This document shows positions 6,504 to 62,969 of a stretch of DNA of 64,000 bases, one piece after another; the first letter of the stretch is position 1, and the number at the start of each line of letters is the position of its first letter. The notes beneath the pieces are model-generated. The model searched no databases. It saw only the letters and a list, made by a program, of their open reading frames with translations, and had not been told where the DNA came from. The stretch is from a virus: positions 62,001 through 126,000 of the IMG/VR virus record IMGVR_UViG_3300032313_001465; one strand, written 5' to 3'. The position numbers and the translations under genes were made by a program.

Positions 6504-6953
6504 ATGATAATTGAGTTAGAAATATTAAAAAAGTATGCTGAGAGTTTCGGGTTCAAATTAAATTTGAACTCGAAATCTTCTGAGGTAACTTTTAAACGGG
6601 GCACATTAAATACTCCTAATAAAATTAATATTATTAATACTAACTCAATCCATCAATATTATTTGTTATTACATGAATTGGGTCATTGGGAATTGATGAA
6701 GGATTGGGGTTTATATAAGCAGAAATATTATTTTTCATCAATGGGTGAAGAATTTGCTCTTGATAAGATATATAAATATCGAAGACGAGTTGCATATAAG
6801 GTAGATATAATGAGAGAAGAATTTGATGCTTGGGAAGCTGGTAAGAATTTAGCTGATAGATTAAATCTTTTTTTGGATATAGTTGACTATAACCAATATA
6901 GCGTTTCATATTTATTTTCGTATATTAAATATTTAGGTAAAAAAAGTAAATAA
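6504..6953 (+). CDS. HExxH metallopeptidase-like protein
   Basis: A 149-aa protein with 'LLLHELGHWELM', the HExxH zinc-binding helix at residues 57-61. A downstream acidic helix 'REEFDAWEAG' (104-113) could supply the third ligand. This resembles the IrrE/ImmA-type compact zincins, which cleave repressor-like partners, but the substrate cannot be inferred. It starts 2 nt after the RadA-like gene and is probably co-transcribed from P6. Confidence 0.6.
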   Translation: MIIELEILKKYAESFGFKLNLNSKSSEVTFKRGTLNTPNKINIINTNSIHQYYLLLHELGHWELMKDWGLYKQKYYFSSMGEEFALDKIYKYRRRVAYKVDIMREEFDAWEAGKNLADRLNLFLDIVDYNQYSVSYLFSYIKYLGKKSK

Positions 6954-9849: not shown

Positions 9850-9923
9850 GCTGCGTTAGGCAAATTGGTTAAGCCGCTACCCTTTCACGGTAGAAATTGA
9901 GGGTTCGAGCCCCTTACGCAGTA
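9850..9923 (+). tRNA. tRNA-Glu (anticodon UUC)
   Basis: Acceptor GCTGCGT (9850-9856) pairs with ACGCAGT (9916-9922, G-U at position 1). D arm GGC/GCC, anticodon stem CTACC/GGTAG with loop CTTTCAC, T arm GAGGG-TTCGAGC-CCCTT. The terminal CCA is not encoded. Confidence 0.9.
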
Positions 9924-9931
9924 CTTTTTAT

Positions 9932-10003
9932 TGCCCTTTCGTCTAATTGGCAGGACAAATGATTTTGGTTCATTAAATTGGAGTTCGAATCTCTGAGGGG
10001 CAA
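9932..10003 (+). tRNA. tRNA-Gln (anticodon UUG)
   Basis: Acceptor TGCCCTT/AGGGGCA, D stem GTC/GAC, anticodon stem AATGA/TCATT with loop TTTTGGT, T loop TTCGAAT. It reads CAA, a codon favoured in this AT-rich genome. CCA not encoded. Confidence 0.9.
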
Positions 10004-10008
10004 CATAT

Positions 10009-10084
10009 CGCGGGATAGGGCAGTTGGTAGCCCGCTAGGCTCATAACCTAGAGGTCGTGGGTTCGAATCCCACTCCCGCAACCA
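10009..10084 (+). tRNA. tRNA-Met (CAU), initiator-like
   Basis: Acceptor CGCGGGA/TCCCGCA leaves position 1-72 as a C-A mismatch, the hallmark of bacterial initiator tRNA. Anticodon loop CTCATAA, T arm GTGGG-TTCGAAT-CCCAC, and an encoded 3' CCA. Of the three G-C pairs usual in initiator anticodon stems, only two are present (CTAGG/CCTAG). Confidence 0.9.
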
Positions 10085-10482: not shown

Positions 10483-10858
10483 GGGGGTGTCAAGGCATCG
10501 ATTGGCAGTCGTAGTTTTTTAGATGCAGGCAGGATAAGATGGAAATCCTTATAAGACTATCAAACAACAACCGCAGTAGAATTATCTACAATGACCTTCG
10601 AAGATGCAATGTCTTTTGTTGGTGCTGACTTAGCAGTAGCTGCCTAGTCGCTCCCGTATCACTCACGGGACTTAAAAAAGAAGTGAAGCTCAGGTGGAAA
10701 AGTGATTGAACCTAAAAATCGAATCACCTATTGTTTGTTGGTTGCCGATGGTAAAGAACCAACCGAATATTTTGTTAGTTAAGAAAAACTGACTAAGCCT
10801 GTGAATGAGTCTAAGAAATTAGCTGAGCAAGACGGAGATTCGAATTCTCCCACCTCCA
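10483..10858 (+). ncRNA. ssrA: tmRNA
   Basis: The tRNA-like half is clear: 5' GGGGGTG pairs with 3' CACCTCC (10851-10857), and the T arm GGAGA-TTCGAAT-TCTCC is perfect. 'CTGACTAAGC' near the 3' side matches the conserved bacterial tmRNA segment. The tag frame ends ADLAVAA-stop (TAG at 10645-10647). If resumption is at GCA 10573 the tag is 24 residues, longer than the usual 8-15; the exact resume codon is uncertain. A CCCGT/ACGGG hairpin after the stop is a pseudoknot stem candidate. tmRNA rescues stalled ribosomes with SmpB; CCA is not encoded. Confidence 0.9.
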
Positions 10859-10863
10859 CAAAT

Positions 10864-10891
10864 AAGCCTACTTTTAAGTGGGCTTTCTTTT
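10864..10891 (+). terminator. rho-independent terminator after tmRNA
   Basis: AAGCCTAC (10864-10871) pairs with GTGGGCTT (10878-10885, one G-U), loop TTTTAA, followed by TTCTTTT. Confidence 0.85.
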
Positions 10892-12848: not shown

Positions 12849-13526
12849 ATGAAATTAGCCCAAGAAAAACCATTAGAAGGTGTTATTTATATAACAACAA
12901 ATTTAATTAATGGGAAAAAATATATTGGGTCGGATTCTAATAATGATAAATATTATTATGGTTCAGGGGTTAATTTAAAACTAGCAATTAAGAAATATGG
13001 AAAATCTAACTTTAAAAAAGATATTTTATGTTATTGCCCCTTAGATAAATTAAGGGAAATGGAAGAATATTACTGTCACTATTATAATGTAGAGAAAAGT
13101 CAACTATTTTATAATTGTACTAATAAAGGGTTAGGTTCAATAAAAGGAATTCCTCATAAAAGAAATAAAAAAGTGTTGCAGTATGATTTACAAGGTAATT
13201 TCCTTCAGGAGTGGGATTCATATACTGATGTATGTAGTAAATTAAATATTAAAACATTAGGATCTGCTTTAAAAGGAGAACAAAAAACTGCAGGTGGGTT
13301 TATTTGGAAATATAAAACAAATGAAGACTTTCCAAAAGTAATATCATCCTTTAAAGATGATAGACTTAAAGATAAACCTATATTACAAATTGATTCAAAT
13401 GGTATTGTGATTAATGAATTTTATTCAATGTGGGAAACTAGAAAAACATTTAAAGAACCTTCTAATATACGAAATGCTTTAATAAAAGGATGTAAAGCTT
13501 ATAATTTTTATTGGAAATTTAAATAA
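12849..13526 (+). CDS. GIY-YIG homing endonuclease with two NUMOD1 modules
   Basis: A 225-aa protein. The GIY-YIG nuclease core is at the N-terminus: 'GVIYITT' (11-17), 'KYIGSD' (24-29), and the helix 'LREMEEYYCHYYN' with the metal-binding glutamate. Two C-terminal NUMOD1-type DNA-binding modules follow, 'QYDLQGNFLQEWDSYTDV' ending AGGFIWKYK, and a second ending YNFYWKFK. This is the Seg-type free-standing homing endonuclease layout: it cuts alleles lacking the gene and spreads by repair. It interrupts the region between the lysis cassette and the late sigma gene. Confidence 0.85.
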   Translation: MKLAQEKPLEGVIYITTNLINGKKYIGSDSNNDKYYYGSGVNLKLAIKKYGKSNFKKDILCYCPLDKLREMEEYYCHYYNVEKSQLFYNCTNKGLGSIKGIPHKRNKKVLQYDLQGNFLQEWDSYTDVCSKLNIKTLGSALKGEQKTAGGFIWKYKTNEDFPKVISSFKDDRLKDKPILQIDSNGIVINEFYSMWETRKTFKEPSNIRNALIKGCKAYNFYWKFK

Positions 13527-42845: not shown

Positions 42846-42875
42846 GTCATATGTATGATAAATACATAATATGAC
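42846..42875 (+). promoter_or_regulatory. hairpin that hides the start codon of the next gene
   Basis: GTCATAT (42846-42852) pairs with ATATGAC (42869-42875), which contains the ATG, and inside it TGTAT (42852-42856) pairs with ATACA (42862-42866) around GATAA. T4 homing endonuclease mRNAs use similar hairpins to block early translation. Confidence 0.55.
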
Positions 42876-43656
42876 AAAAATATATTATTTACATAGAGGA
42901 AACAACATTCCATTTTATATTGGGAAAACTATAAATGAAAAGGATAGAAAACACCAACATAAAAACAAGTTAGGGAAAGATGTAACTTTAGAAATTATAG
43001 ATGAAATTCCCACAAAGGAATGGAGATATTGGGAAGAATTTTATATTTCACTTTTTAAACATTGGGGATTTAAATTAGAAAATAAAAATAATGGTGGTTG
43101 TGGTAGTATAGGAGGTTATAAAAACCCCTTAACCTCAGAAGCCCATAAAGGGAGAATTAGCCCAAATAAAAATAAAGGGAAAAAAATAATCCAATATGAC
43201 TTAACAGGAAAATTTATTAATGAATGGGATAACATAAATGAGGCCATACTCACCTTAAATCTTACAATAACTAATGAAAGTATTCGTCAATGTTTAATTG
43301 GTAAAAGTAAAAAATCAGCTAATTTTATCTGGAGAAATTTAACCCAAGATTACCCAATCCATTTATCTAGTAACGAAGTAGAATATATATTAAAAAAAAC
43401 AAATGGTCCTAAAGGTCAAAAACTTAATACCGGAGAAAAAATCAGCCAATCTTTAAAAGGAAAACGAAAATCCCCTCAATTCATAAAAAATATAAGTAAA
43501 CCTGTAGCTCAATATGATAAACAAGGAAACTATCTTACACAATATAAAAGTATCACAGAAGCCGCTTTGGCTGTTAATGGATGGAACGAAAACATATGTC
43601 AGTGTTGTAAAGGAAACAAAAAATCATCAGCTGGATATTTTTGGCAATATTTATAA
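42871..43656 (+). CDS. GIY-YIG homing endonuclease with NUMOD1 modules
   Basis: A 261-aa protein. 'MTKIYYLHRGNNIPFYIGKT' is the GIY-YIG core and 'EWRYWEEFYISLF' the following helix. Then 'GGYKNPLTSEAHKGRISPNK' resembles a NUMOD3-type motif, and two NUMOD1-type modules end in 'KSANFIWRNL' and 'SSAGYFWQYL'. It is inserted between two cargo-like genes and directly precedes the second LRR copy. Confidence 0.8.
   Translation: MTKIYYLHRGNNIPFYIGKTINEKDRKHQHKNKLGKDVTLEIIDEIPTKEWRYWEEFYISLFKHWGFKLENKNNGGCGSIGGYKNPLTSEAHKGRISPNKNKGKKIIQYDLTGKFINEWDNINEAILTLNLTITNESIRQCLIGKSKKSANFIWRNLTQDYPIHLSSNEVEYILKKTNGPKGQKLNTGEKISQSLKGKRKSPQFIKNISKPVAQYDKQGNYLTQYKSITEAALAVNGWNENICQCCKGNKKSSAGYFWQYL
43647..43656 (+). 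promoter_or_regulatory. late-type ATATTTAT motif at the endonuclease gene end
   Basis: ATATTTATAA covers the last codons and stop of the endonuclease gene and ends 3 nt before the LRR start. Confidence 0.45.
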
Positions 43657-61469: not shown

Positions 61470-62969
61470 ATGAAAAAACAATATAATTCAAAAATTATAC
61501 AATATTCAATATCTGGGGATGTTATAAATATATTTAATTCACCACATGATGCTGTACATATTGTTAATTATGATTCTATAATTAGTTGTTGCAAGGGAAA
61601 ATATAAAACAGCAGGTGGATTTATATGGGAATTTGAAGATAATAAAATTCCAAATATATCTAAGGACGGAGACATACAATGTAAAATATGCAAATCCAAA
61701 GAATCAGTACGTTCTATGGCTATGCATTTAAGGTGGGTACATAACATAAAAACAAATGAATATGTAAAGGAGTTTGGAGAATTTAGACCTAAAGAACTAA
61801 AATCAAATACAAAAAAACAAGAATCTGGGTTTGAATGTAAGGAATGTGGTGAAAAATTAAAAAGTAATCAAAATTTAATGTATCATATTACAAAGTCTCA
61901 CCCTGAAATAACTAAACATGACTATATAATTAAACATTTATATAAGGAAATCCATCCAACTTGTAAATGTGGATGTGGGGAGGAGGTAACAATATTAGAA
62001 AACGGTAAAAATTGTGATTTAGGTAAAGAAACGTATTCTAGAGACTATATAAAAGGACACTGGGATTGGGAAGTATTTTCAAACATAGGGAAACAATCTA
62101 AAGAAGAAATAAAATTAGTAGATTTCATAAAAACAATATATTCAGGTGAAATCCAAACCAGTGTTAGGGGGATAATCCCTAAATCAGAAATAGATATATA
62201 TTTACCTGAATTAAATATTGGAATTGAATATAATGGATTATATTGGCACTCTGAAAAAGGAGGGAGATTTAAAGAATATCATTTAGAAAAATTAAAAAAA
62301 GCTAATGAAGTAAATATTAGATTAATACAAATATTTTCAGATGAGTGGTTAAATAAAAATGAGATTACTAAAAATAAACTAATATCAATCATTCAGCCTA
62401 AATCAAATAGAGTATATGCTCGAAAGTGTAATATAAAAGAAATATCATCAACTGATAAAAATATTTTTTTAAATAAATATCATATTCAAGGTGAAGATAG
62501 AAGTACATATAAGTTAGGAATTTTTAATTTAGATGAATTGATAGGAGTTATGACTTTTTCCAAACCTAGAATATCATTAGGAGGTAATATAAAATTAGAA
62601 GATACTTATGAATTATCAAGGTACGCCTCTTCAACATATATTGTTGGTGGAGCTGCTAAATTAATAAAATATTTTAAAAAACTCATCAACCCAAAATTAA
62701 TATATTCATATTCAGATAATAGATGGACTAATCCTAACAATAATATGTACCTGAAATTAGGGTTTAAACATGTTAAAACTTCCTCCCCTAATTATTTTTA
62801 TACAAAAAATTATCTAACACGAATTCATAGATATAATTTTAATAAATTTAATCTTAAAAAAATGGGAGCAGATGTACAAAATCATACTGAGTTTCAAATT
62901 ATGGAAGGATTGGGATATACTAAAATATGGGACTGTGGTTCTTCTAGGTATGAGTTAAAATTTAGTTAA
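61470..62969 (+). CDS. composite homing endonuclease (NUMOD1, zinc fingers, Vsr-like nuclease)
   Basis: A 499-aa multi-domain protein. Residues 1-55: NUMOD1 ('IIQYSISGDVINIFNSPHDA' to AGGFIWEF). 70-170: three Cys/His clusters ('CKICKSKESVRSMAMHLRWV', 'FECKECGEKL', 'TCKCGCGEE'). 235-300: 'IPKSEIDIYLPELNIGIEYN' and 'GLYWHSE', an EDxHD/Vsr-like nuclease core (Glu240, Asp242, Glu253, His260). 310-499: a C-terminal domain with a GNAT-like look ('KYHIQGEDRSTYKLGIFNLD'). It lies next to the capsid gene, a common target for phage homing enzymes. Confidence 0.75.
   Translation: MKKQYNSKIIQYSISGDVINIFNSPHDAVHIVNYDSIISCCKGKYKTAGGFIWEFEDNKIPNISKDGDIQCKICKSKESVRSMAMHLRWVHNIKTNEYVKEFGEFRPKELKSNTKKQESGFECKECGEKLKSNQNLMYHITKSHPEITKHDYIIKHLYKEIHPTCKCGCGEEVTILENGKNCDLGKETYSRDYIKGHWDWEVFSNIGKQSKEEIKLVDFIKTIYSGEIQTSVRGIIPKSEIDIYLPELNIGIEYNGLYWHSEKGGRFKEYHLEKLKKANEVNIRLIQIFSDEWLNKNEITKNKLISIIQPKSNRVYARKCNIKEISSTDKNIFLNKYHIQGEDRSTYKLGIFNLDELIGVMTFSKPRISLGGNIKLEDTYELSRYASSTYIVGGAAKLIKYFKKLINPKLIYSYSDNRWTNPNNNMYLKLGFKHVKTSSPNYFYTKNYLTRIHRYNFNKFNLKKMGADVQNHTEFQIMEGLGYTKIWDCGSSRYELKFS

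What the first reader, a model, noticed from the sequence alone, without database searches (positions are those of the whole stretch)
10483..10858. Phage-encoded tmRNA with an apparently long tag
A complete tmRNA, with its own terminator, stands beside three tRNAs. The tag frame ends ADLAVAA-stop. The last plausible resume codon I can find gives 24 residues, well above the common length. A 5-bp hairpin (10576-10589) lies inside the tag region. A phage tmRNA could redirect rescue of stalled ribosomes, or mark peptides with a tag that host proteases treat differently.
Basis: partly seen in the sequence, partly recalled or inferred. Interest (0 to 1): 0.68.

Follow-up and report, generated by a model that had tools for sequence, protein, structure and literature searches.

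The report
Phage rescue RNA with long tag
A virus of aquatic Bacteroidota bacteria carries its own ribosome-rescue RNA (tmRNA), whose protein tag is about two and a half times as long as its likely hosts' tags; the long tag is conserved as a peptide across many uncultivated phages, was found in no sampled bacterial genome, and in some of these phages lies just downstream of a phage-encoded ClpP protease gene.

Summary
The finding holds. A one-piece tmRNA lies at 10483-10858 (Rfam RF00023, 67.3 bits), with an alanine-identity acceptor stem, PK1, H5 and a terminator. The resume codon is GCA 10573-10575, 11 nt after PK1 with A at -4, as in E. coli. This gives a 24-codon tag, AVELSTMTFEDAMSFVGADLAVAA.

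The length is not a mis-called start. A scan using only the tag's C-terminus gave 130 matches, all with the N-terminal extension. The extension is selected as peptide (pN/pS about 0.3 in the tag frame, above 1 in the others). Sampled Bacteroidota tmRNAs have 9-10 codon tags, and the motif is absent from 84,980 bacterial and archaeal genomes.

In 8 of 9 STMTF-tag phage records that encode ClpP, the gene lies 3.7-9.5 kb upstream of the tmRNA on the same strand. The window phage has no ClpP or SmpB.

Best reading: a phage tmRNA used with host SmpB, adding a two-part tag: a host-like ClpP degron plus a phage-specific docking segment (inferred). Other long-tag families occur, including in cultured Cellulophaga phages. 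Published tags span 8-35 residues, so this is a new variant of a known kind.

The parts
10483..10858 (+). tmRNA gene (ssrA), mature RNA to discriminator base; CCA not encoded
   Evidence: RF00023 67.3 bits at 10483-10861; covariation over 50 pairs, 0/500 shuffles reach it
10483..10489 (+). acceptor stem 5' strand GGGGGUG; G3 (10485) pairs with U70 (10855), the alanine identity pair
   Evidence: read from sequence; helix 1 (GU in 22 of 23 scored sequences)
10531..10561 (+). pseudoknot PK1: AGGAU/AUCCU (10531-35, 10545-49) interlaced with GAUGG/CUAUC (10538-42, 10557-61)
   Evidence: compensatory changes in both stems
10562..10572 (+). 11-nt linker AAACAACAACC between PK1 and resume codon; A at -4 is 10569 (E. 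coli A86 equivalent)
   Evidence: sequence; 11 nt and A86 rule from PMC2481249; A at -4 in all sampled host and phage tmRNAs
10573..10575 (+). resume codon GCA (GCA, GCT, GAC or GGC in relatives)
   Evidence: position after PK1; relaxed ARAGORN frame
10573..10647 (+). tag reading frame, 24 codons plus TAG: AVELSTMTFEDAMSFVGADLAVAA
   Evidence: tag-frame pN/pS 0.3 in relatives
10576..10589 (+). 5-bp hairpin GUAGA-AUUA-UCUAC directly after the resume codon
   Evidence: 29/29 paired, compensatory changes at 2 pairs; all 50 distinct 21-mers of the family can form it in some version
10585..10626 (+). conserved tag core STMTFEDAMSFVGA (family: S[ST][MFW]T[FWY][ED]DxMxF[VI]GA), the phage-specific extension
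   Evidence: absent from 84,980 genomes
10627..10644 (+). tag C-terminus DLAVAA, similar to host tag ends (YALAA, YAMAA, YAYAA)
10624..10651 (+). helix H5, holding the end of the tag frame and the stop codon
   Evidence: compensatory AU/UA and UA/CG changes
10652..10670 (+). hairpin after H5
   Evidence: helices 6-7
10692..10727 (+). pseudoknot PK2: AGGU/ACCU interlaced with GUGAUU/AAUCAC
   Evidence: helices 8-10; 64-81% of cells paired, module replaced in some relatives
10774..10793 (+). last MLD helix (PK4 position) GUUAGUU/AACUGAC
   Evidence: helix 11, 95.6% paired, 4 pairs with changes on both sides
10834..10850 (+). T-arm GGAGA-UUCGAAU-UCUCC
   Evidence: helix 12, 100% paired, 5 pairs with changes on both sides
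10864..10885 (+). intrinsic terminator AAGCCTACTTTTAAGTGGGCTT followed by TCTTTT
9850..10084 (+). three tRNA genes: Glu(TTC) 9850-9924, Gln(TTG) 9932-10004, Met(CAT) 10009-10084

Best explanation
This is a one-piece tmRNA of a T4-like phage that most likely infects an aquatic Bacteroidota bacterium. Shown by sequence: the anatomy, the 24-codon frame, the resume position, peptide-level conservation of the long tag, the conserved resume-codon hairpin, absence of the motif from sequenced bacteria, and the ClpP linkage in relatives. Inferred: during infection the RNA is charged with alanine, works with host SmpB (the phage has none), enters ribosomes stalled on broken mRNAs and adds Ala plus 24 residues. 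The tag has two parts. The last six residues imitate the host degron read by ClpX(P). The N-terminal core STMTFEDxMxFVGA, which has a helix-capping and amphipathic pattern, is a phage-specific docking segment that delivers tagged chains to a particular Clp complex or adaptor: a phage ClpP in some relatives, the host enzyme in this one. The hairpin after the resume codon probably holds the template closed until tmRNA is loaded, like the weakly supported 'helix m' of E. coli models.
For: tmRNA: RF00023 67.3 bits; 50 pairs tested on 26 relatives, 32 pairs with changes on both sides against 15.8 in shuffles, 0/500. Resume codon: 11 nt after PK1 with A at -4, as in PMC2481249. Long tag: the scan on the C-terminus alone gave 130 hits, all with the extension. 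pN/pS is 0.32 in frame against 1.29 and 2.32; for the core it is 0.30, bootstrap 0.14-0.49. Residues interchange by chemistry (M/F/W, F/W/Y) through multi-base codon changes. Phage-specific: no match in 84,980 genomes; host tags 9-10 codons; no other copy of the motif in 3.0 Mb of phage DNA. Clp link: ClpP in 9 of 32 STMTF-tag records; in 8 of 9 it is upstream on the same strand 3.7-9.5 kb away, with tRNAs between. ClpP reading frames show the Ser, His and Asp motifs. Hairpin. Precedent for a phage-borne tag adaptor: SspB in phage pf16 (PMC5587285).
Against: No RNA or peptide data. The window phage has no PF00574 ClpP, SspB or SmpB, so any special Clp route here must use host proteins or unrecognised ones. 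ClpP presence itself is not significantly enriched over relatives without this tag (9/32 against 3/26, Fisher p 0.19), and the linked loci may share descent. Docking to an adaptor is inferred from conservation only.
Confidence: 0.6

Rival explanations
1. The real tag is short: translation resumes at an internal alanine codon (GCT 10624, ADLAVAA, or GCA 10606), and the upstream stretch is an untranslated spacer.
For: In some relatives ARAGORN picks such internal codons (ANEYALAA, ADEYAYAA, ADYALAA), and these short versions resemble host tags such as GENNYALAA.
Against: The upstream codons show strong peptide-level selection (pN/pS about 0.3). The internal GCT lacks A at -4 and lies 51 nt further from PK1; the codon at 10606 is Leu or Val in many relatives. 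The first codon keeps the 11-nt spacing and A at -4.
Confidence: 0.05
2. Ordinary rescue with a neutral tag: the phage carries tmRNA to free ribosomes when host mRNA is degraded, the C-terminus feeds host ClpXP as usual, and the extension has no special partner.
For: Trans-translation tolerates altered tags, and ribosome release rather than degradation sustains E. coli (PMC8012679; PMC2481249). The C-termini match host tags.
Against: A neutral extension would not be held at pN/pS 0.3 with invariant S, T, F and G positions across divergent phages, some with only 30-33% terminase identity.
Confidence: 0.2
3. The extension makes tagged proteins stable, relocates them or gives them an activity (for example an amphipathic helix that binds a host factor), so the tag serves takeover rather than degradation.
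For: Ends differ from the common LAA (VAA, IAA, YAA, TFA); cultured Cellulophaga phages end in VAVGV; the motif is absent from hosts.
Against: Most tags keep a Y-A-x-A-A end like host degrons, and ClpP sits next to the tmRNA in 8 records.
Confidence: 0.15
4. The hairpin and altered template mainly protect the phage tmRNA from ribosome-dependent host nucleases of defence or stress systems that cut tmRNA.
For: Hairpin conservation with compensatory changes; toxin cleavage of tmRNA is reported (title of PMC3912914).
Against: Does not explain peptide-level conservation of the core; nothing here tests cleavage.
Confidence: 0.1

Closest known systems
Bacterial one-piece tmRNA (ssrA, Rfam RF00023), Bacteroidota type
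   Same: tRNA-like domain with G3-U70, PK1, 11-nt linker with A at -4, H5 with the stop codon, PK2 and PK4-position helices, C-terminal YAxAA-like tag end.
   Different: 24 codons instead of 9-10; a phage-specific conserved core STMTF[ED]DxMxF[VI]GA; a conserved hairpin directly after the resume codon; RF00023 score 67 against 105-198 bits in Bacteroidota.
tmRNA of Cellulophaga phages phi38:1 and Calle_1 (Callevirus)
   Same: Phage-borne tmRNA in a Bacteroidota phage, long tag of 22 codons AQIEANMEAVNAILNLEVAVGV.
   Different: Unrelated tag sequence, ends in VAVGV, podovirus-like phage, no STMTF core.
tmRNA of Bacillus phage G and two-piece tmRNA of marine phages such as Melnitz (PMC9004378)
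   Same: Phage-encoded tmRNA; role in infection unknown.
   Different: Phage G tag is 13 codons; Melnitz tmRNA is permuted, two-piece and linked to a glutamine riboswitch.
E. coli tmRNA 'helix m'
   Same: A small helix around the resume codon that might mask it (PMC1168896).
   Different: In E. coli it is called weakly supported; here the hairpin is kept in every relative with compensatory changes and starts after the resume codon in the window subgroup.
Phage pf16 SspB homologue
   Same: Precedent for a phage handling ssrA-tag delivery to ClpXP (PMC5587285).
   Different: pf16 has the adaptor and no tmRNA; here there is a tmRNA and no SspB.

Membership tests
tmRNA (RF00023), one-piece | Covariance-model score above gathering cut-off, full-length match | tested here: met
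   67.3 bits against 47, model positions 1-374
tmRNA (RF00023), one-piece | Alanine-type acceptor stem with G3-U70 and a tRNA-like T-arm | tested here: met
   G 10485 with U 10855; T-arm GGAGA-UUCGAAU-UCUCC; covariation
tmRNA (RF00023), one-piece | PK1 upstream of a resume codon, about 11 nt linker, A at -4 | tested here: met
   10531-10561, 11 nt, A 10569 (PMC2481249)
tmRNA (RF00023), one-piece | H5 around the end of the tag frame and the stop codon | tested here: met
   10624-10651 with compensatory changes
tmRNA (RF00023), one-piece | PK2, PK3 and PK4 | tested here: inconclusive
   PK2 and the PK4-position helix supported; PK3 not resolved, and that stretch is exchanged between relatives
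tmRNA (RF00023), one-piece | Tag frame ending in a ClpXP-type hydrophobic end | tested here: met
   ends ADLAVAA; relatives YAVAA, YALAA, YAYAA
tmRNA (RF00023), one-piece | Ribosome rescue and tagging activity with SmpB | not testable with these tools
   no SmpB in the phage; needs experiment
Bacteroidota host-type tmRNA tag | Tag of 9-10 codons | tested here: not met
   24 codons here; most of 60 sampled Bacteroidota loci give 8-10
Two-piece (permuted) tmRNA | Acceptor half upstream and permuted order | tested here: not met
   collinear full-length match to the one-piece model
ClpP-linked tag system of relatives | Phage ClpP within 10 kb upstream of the STMTF tmRNA | tested here: not met
   no PF00574 match in G000; present in 8 other records

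The most novel reading that the evidence does not exclude
Phages of aquatic Bacteroidota have evolved their own protein-tagging channel: a tmRNA with a two-part tag whose phage-specific core addresses stalled chains to a phage-chosen Clp complex, in some genomes encoded as one block with a phage ClpP and a tRNA array, so that the phage rather than the host decides the fate of unfinished proteins.
Probability: 0.3. Interest if true: 0.85.

Novelty: new variant of a known kind. Interest (0 to 1): 0.62.

Why it matters
It is a widespread family of phage tmRNAs whose tag is conserved as a peptide and differs from the sampled host tags. This turns 'why do phages carry tmRNA' into a direct experiment: change only the tag core and see whether infection or protein turnover changes. 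It also offers comparative support for a hairpin at the resume codon, a feature called weakly supported in E. coli models, and it links a phage tmRNA by gene order to a phage-encoded ClpP. Cultured Cellulophaga phages with 22-codon tags make part of this testable now.

Tried and rejected
Short tag from an internal alanine codon: rejected on pN/pS, A at -4 and relatives. RNA-only constraint on the extension: rejected by frame-specific synonymous variation. A mid-tag helix predicted at 10594-10623: no covariation. A second, protein-coded copy of the motif in phage DNA: none in 3.0 Mb. Similarity of the tag to solved structures: only chance-level hits. Cultured phages with the STMTF tag: none convincing by tblastn, though a 24-aa query has limited reach. 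Nearest cultured relative Flavobacterium phage immuto (60% terminase identity) has no tmRNA. A recalled 25-residue mycobacteriophage tag was not found by tblastn and is not used. SmpB and SspB in the phage: none. ClpP enrichment by presence alone: not significant. Two older mycobacteriophage records could not be fetched.

Full report
What is there. The window lies in a 148,581-base virus record with T4-like structural genes: gp17-type terminase, gp20, gp21-type protease, gp23 and gp25. The terminase is closest among cultured phages to Flavobacterium phage immuto, about 60% identical, and closer relatives sit in Flavobacteriales, Flavobacteriaceae and other Bacteroidota MAGs, so a Bacteroidota host is likely. 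Rfam places a complete tmRNA at 10483-10861 (67.3 bits); ARAGORN misses it at default stringency and reports the same 24-aa frame when relaxed. Three tRNAs precede it and a terminator follows.

Anatomy. The acceptor stem 10483-10489 with 10851-10857 carries the G3-U70 pair. PK1 is 10531-10561. It is followed by the 11-nt linker AAACAACAACC with A at -4 (10569). E. coli has exactly 11 nt (AAAAAAUAGUC) and needs A86 at that place (PMC2481249). The next codon is GCA 10573-10575, and the frame runs 24 codons to TAG 10645-10647: AVELSTMTFEDAMSFVGADLAVAA. H5 (10624-10651) encloses the end of the tag and the stop codon. On alignments of 26 and 29 relatives the named helices are strongly supported: 32 of 50 pairs with changes on both sides against 15.8 in shuffles, and slid controls pair only 40-50% of cells. 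PK3 could not be resolved.

The long tag is real and selected. To avoid ascertainment, a second scan used only the last codons (GADYAxAA-stop). All 130 matches carried the extension, with a T-arm-like sequence downstream in nearly all of those listed, and it revealed wider variation such as SSFTF, SSFTW and STWTF. Over 57 distinct extensions mean entropy at codon positions 1, 2 and 3 is 0.46, 0.25 and 0.90 bits, and pN/pS is 0.32 in the tag frame against 1.29 and 2.32 in the other frames. For the core in 84 sequences it is 0.30 (95% 0.14-0.49 by codon bootstrap). Hydrophobic positions interchange M, F and W or F, W and Y by multi-base changes. The extension is therefore translated and conserved as peptide. 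These tests do not correct for phylogeny; the frame contrast is the main control.

Phage-specific. Sampled Bacteroidota tmRNAs encode 9-10 codons, mainly GENNYALAA or ANDYSYAMAA types (loci were the best-scoring ones). The STMTF pattern has no match in 84,980 bacterial and archaeal genomes nor, by tblastn of the 24-aa tag, in 50,697 phage records. It occurs in T4-like relatives (terminase 53-72% identical) and in two larger records of 219 and 294 kb whose terminases are only 30-33% identical. Among 9 tmRNAs found without reference to the tag in 50 relatives, all encode about 20 or more codons. They include a second family [GD]NVYNxMExxGLxxTSxVA(V)A (37 contigs in its own scan) and ATRQERIAEGEAILASIFNEEFALAA. 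Cultured Cellulophaga phages phi38:1 and Calle_1 encode 22 codons, AQIEANMEAVNAILNLEVAVGV. Long tags thus recur in Bacteroidota phages, but not in all phage tmRNAs: Bacillus phage G has 13.

The hairpin. The 5-bp hairpin at 10576-10589 pairs in 29 of 29 relatives, with UA/AU and AU/UA exchanges. Every one of 50 distinct 21-mers in the family can form a hairpin of at least 4 bp there, in 16 different sequences, against about 27% of shuffles. Host tmRNAs show such a hairpin only sometimes and at varied places. E. coli models contain a weakly supported 'helix m' at the resume codon that may have to melt (PMC1168896). The first tag codons therefore carry two constraints, peptide and pairing. A second predicted helix in the middle of the tag has no covariation.

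ClpP. PF00574 ClpP occurs in 9 of 32 STMTF-tag records and 3 of 26 others (p 0.19), so presence alone is not telling. Position is: in 8 of the 9 records the gene is upstream of the tmRNA on the same strand, 3.7-9.5 kb away, with tRNA genes between. The ClpP frames are full length with Ser, His and Asp motifs. Shared descent is not excluded. The window phage lacks ClpP, SspB and SmpB, so it must use host SmpB and proteases.

How it likely works. Shown: a tmRNA with a conserved 24-codon tag and resume hairpin. From established knowledge: alanine charging by G3-U70, SmpB-dependent entry, tagging, Clp degradation of YALAA-type ends. Inferred: the core STMTFEDxMxFVG, with a T-x-x-D/E helix-cap pattern and hydrophobic residues spaced as in an amphipathic helix, docks the tagged chain to a Clp partner, phage-encoded in some relatives. 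A phage-borne SspB in pf16 (PMC5587285) is a precedent for phages acting on tag delivery.

Known or new. It belongs to the tmRNA family. Published tags span 8-35 residues (PMC8012679), so length alone is not unprecedented. No paper found in the held library describes this tag family, though most subscription papers are not held. Verdict: new variant of a known kind, interest moderate to high because the function of phage tmRNA becomes directly testable.

Noticed in passing
L543, L544, L546, L548-L552 (relatives): Block of phage ClpP gene, tRNA cluster and STMTF tmRNA, all on one strand, 3.7-9.5 kb from ClpP to tmRNA.
   Followed up: partly
L491-L527, L295, L300, L301: Second family of phage tmRNAs with 20-21 codon tags, [GD]NVYNxMExxGLxxTSxVA(V)A, in 37 viral contigs; third family ATRQERIAEGEAILASIFNEEFALAA (L298, L528-L530).
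   Followed up: partly
L414 (LR756508, 484-kb uncultured phage): tmRNA with an apparently very long tag frame, about 30 or more codons ending ERKPAAV; ARAGORN's 8-aa call is probably wrong.
   Followed up: no
window 10690-10770, compared in alignment A2: The PK2-PK3 stretch differs in blocks between relatives while the tag region and last helix stay alike, as if pseudoknot modules are exchanged.
   Followed up: no
window 6504-6953: ORF with a HELGH zinc-metallopeptidase motif 3.5 kb upstream of the tmRNA, with no peptidase family among the Pfam matches at 1e-5.
   Followed up: no
window 12849-13526, 42871-43656, 61470-62969: Homing-endonuclease-like genes (GIY-YIG/NUMOD types), one directly after the gp23-type major capsid gene.
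   Followed up: partly
G000 outside the window (L485, L486): The phage genome also matches Cpn60 chaperonin, QueC, PTPS and GTP cyclohydrolase I (7-deazaguanine-type genes), and glycosyltransferases.
   Followed up: no
window 10483-10861; L165, L207, L224, L250: ARAGORN misses this tmRNA at default settings and in some relatives picks an internal alanine codon, so databases built with it will under-report long phage tags.
   Followed up: partly
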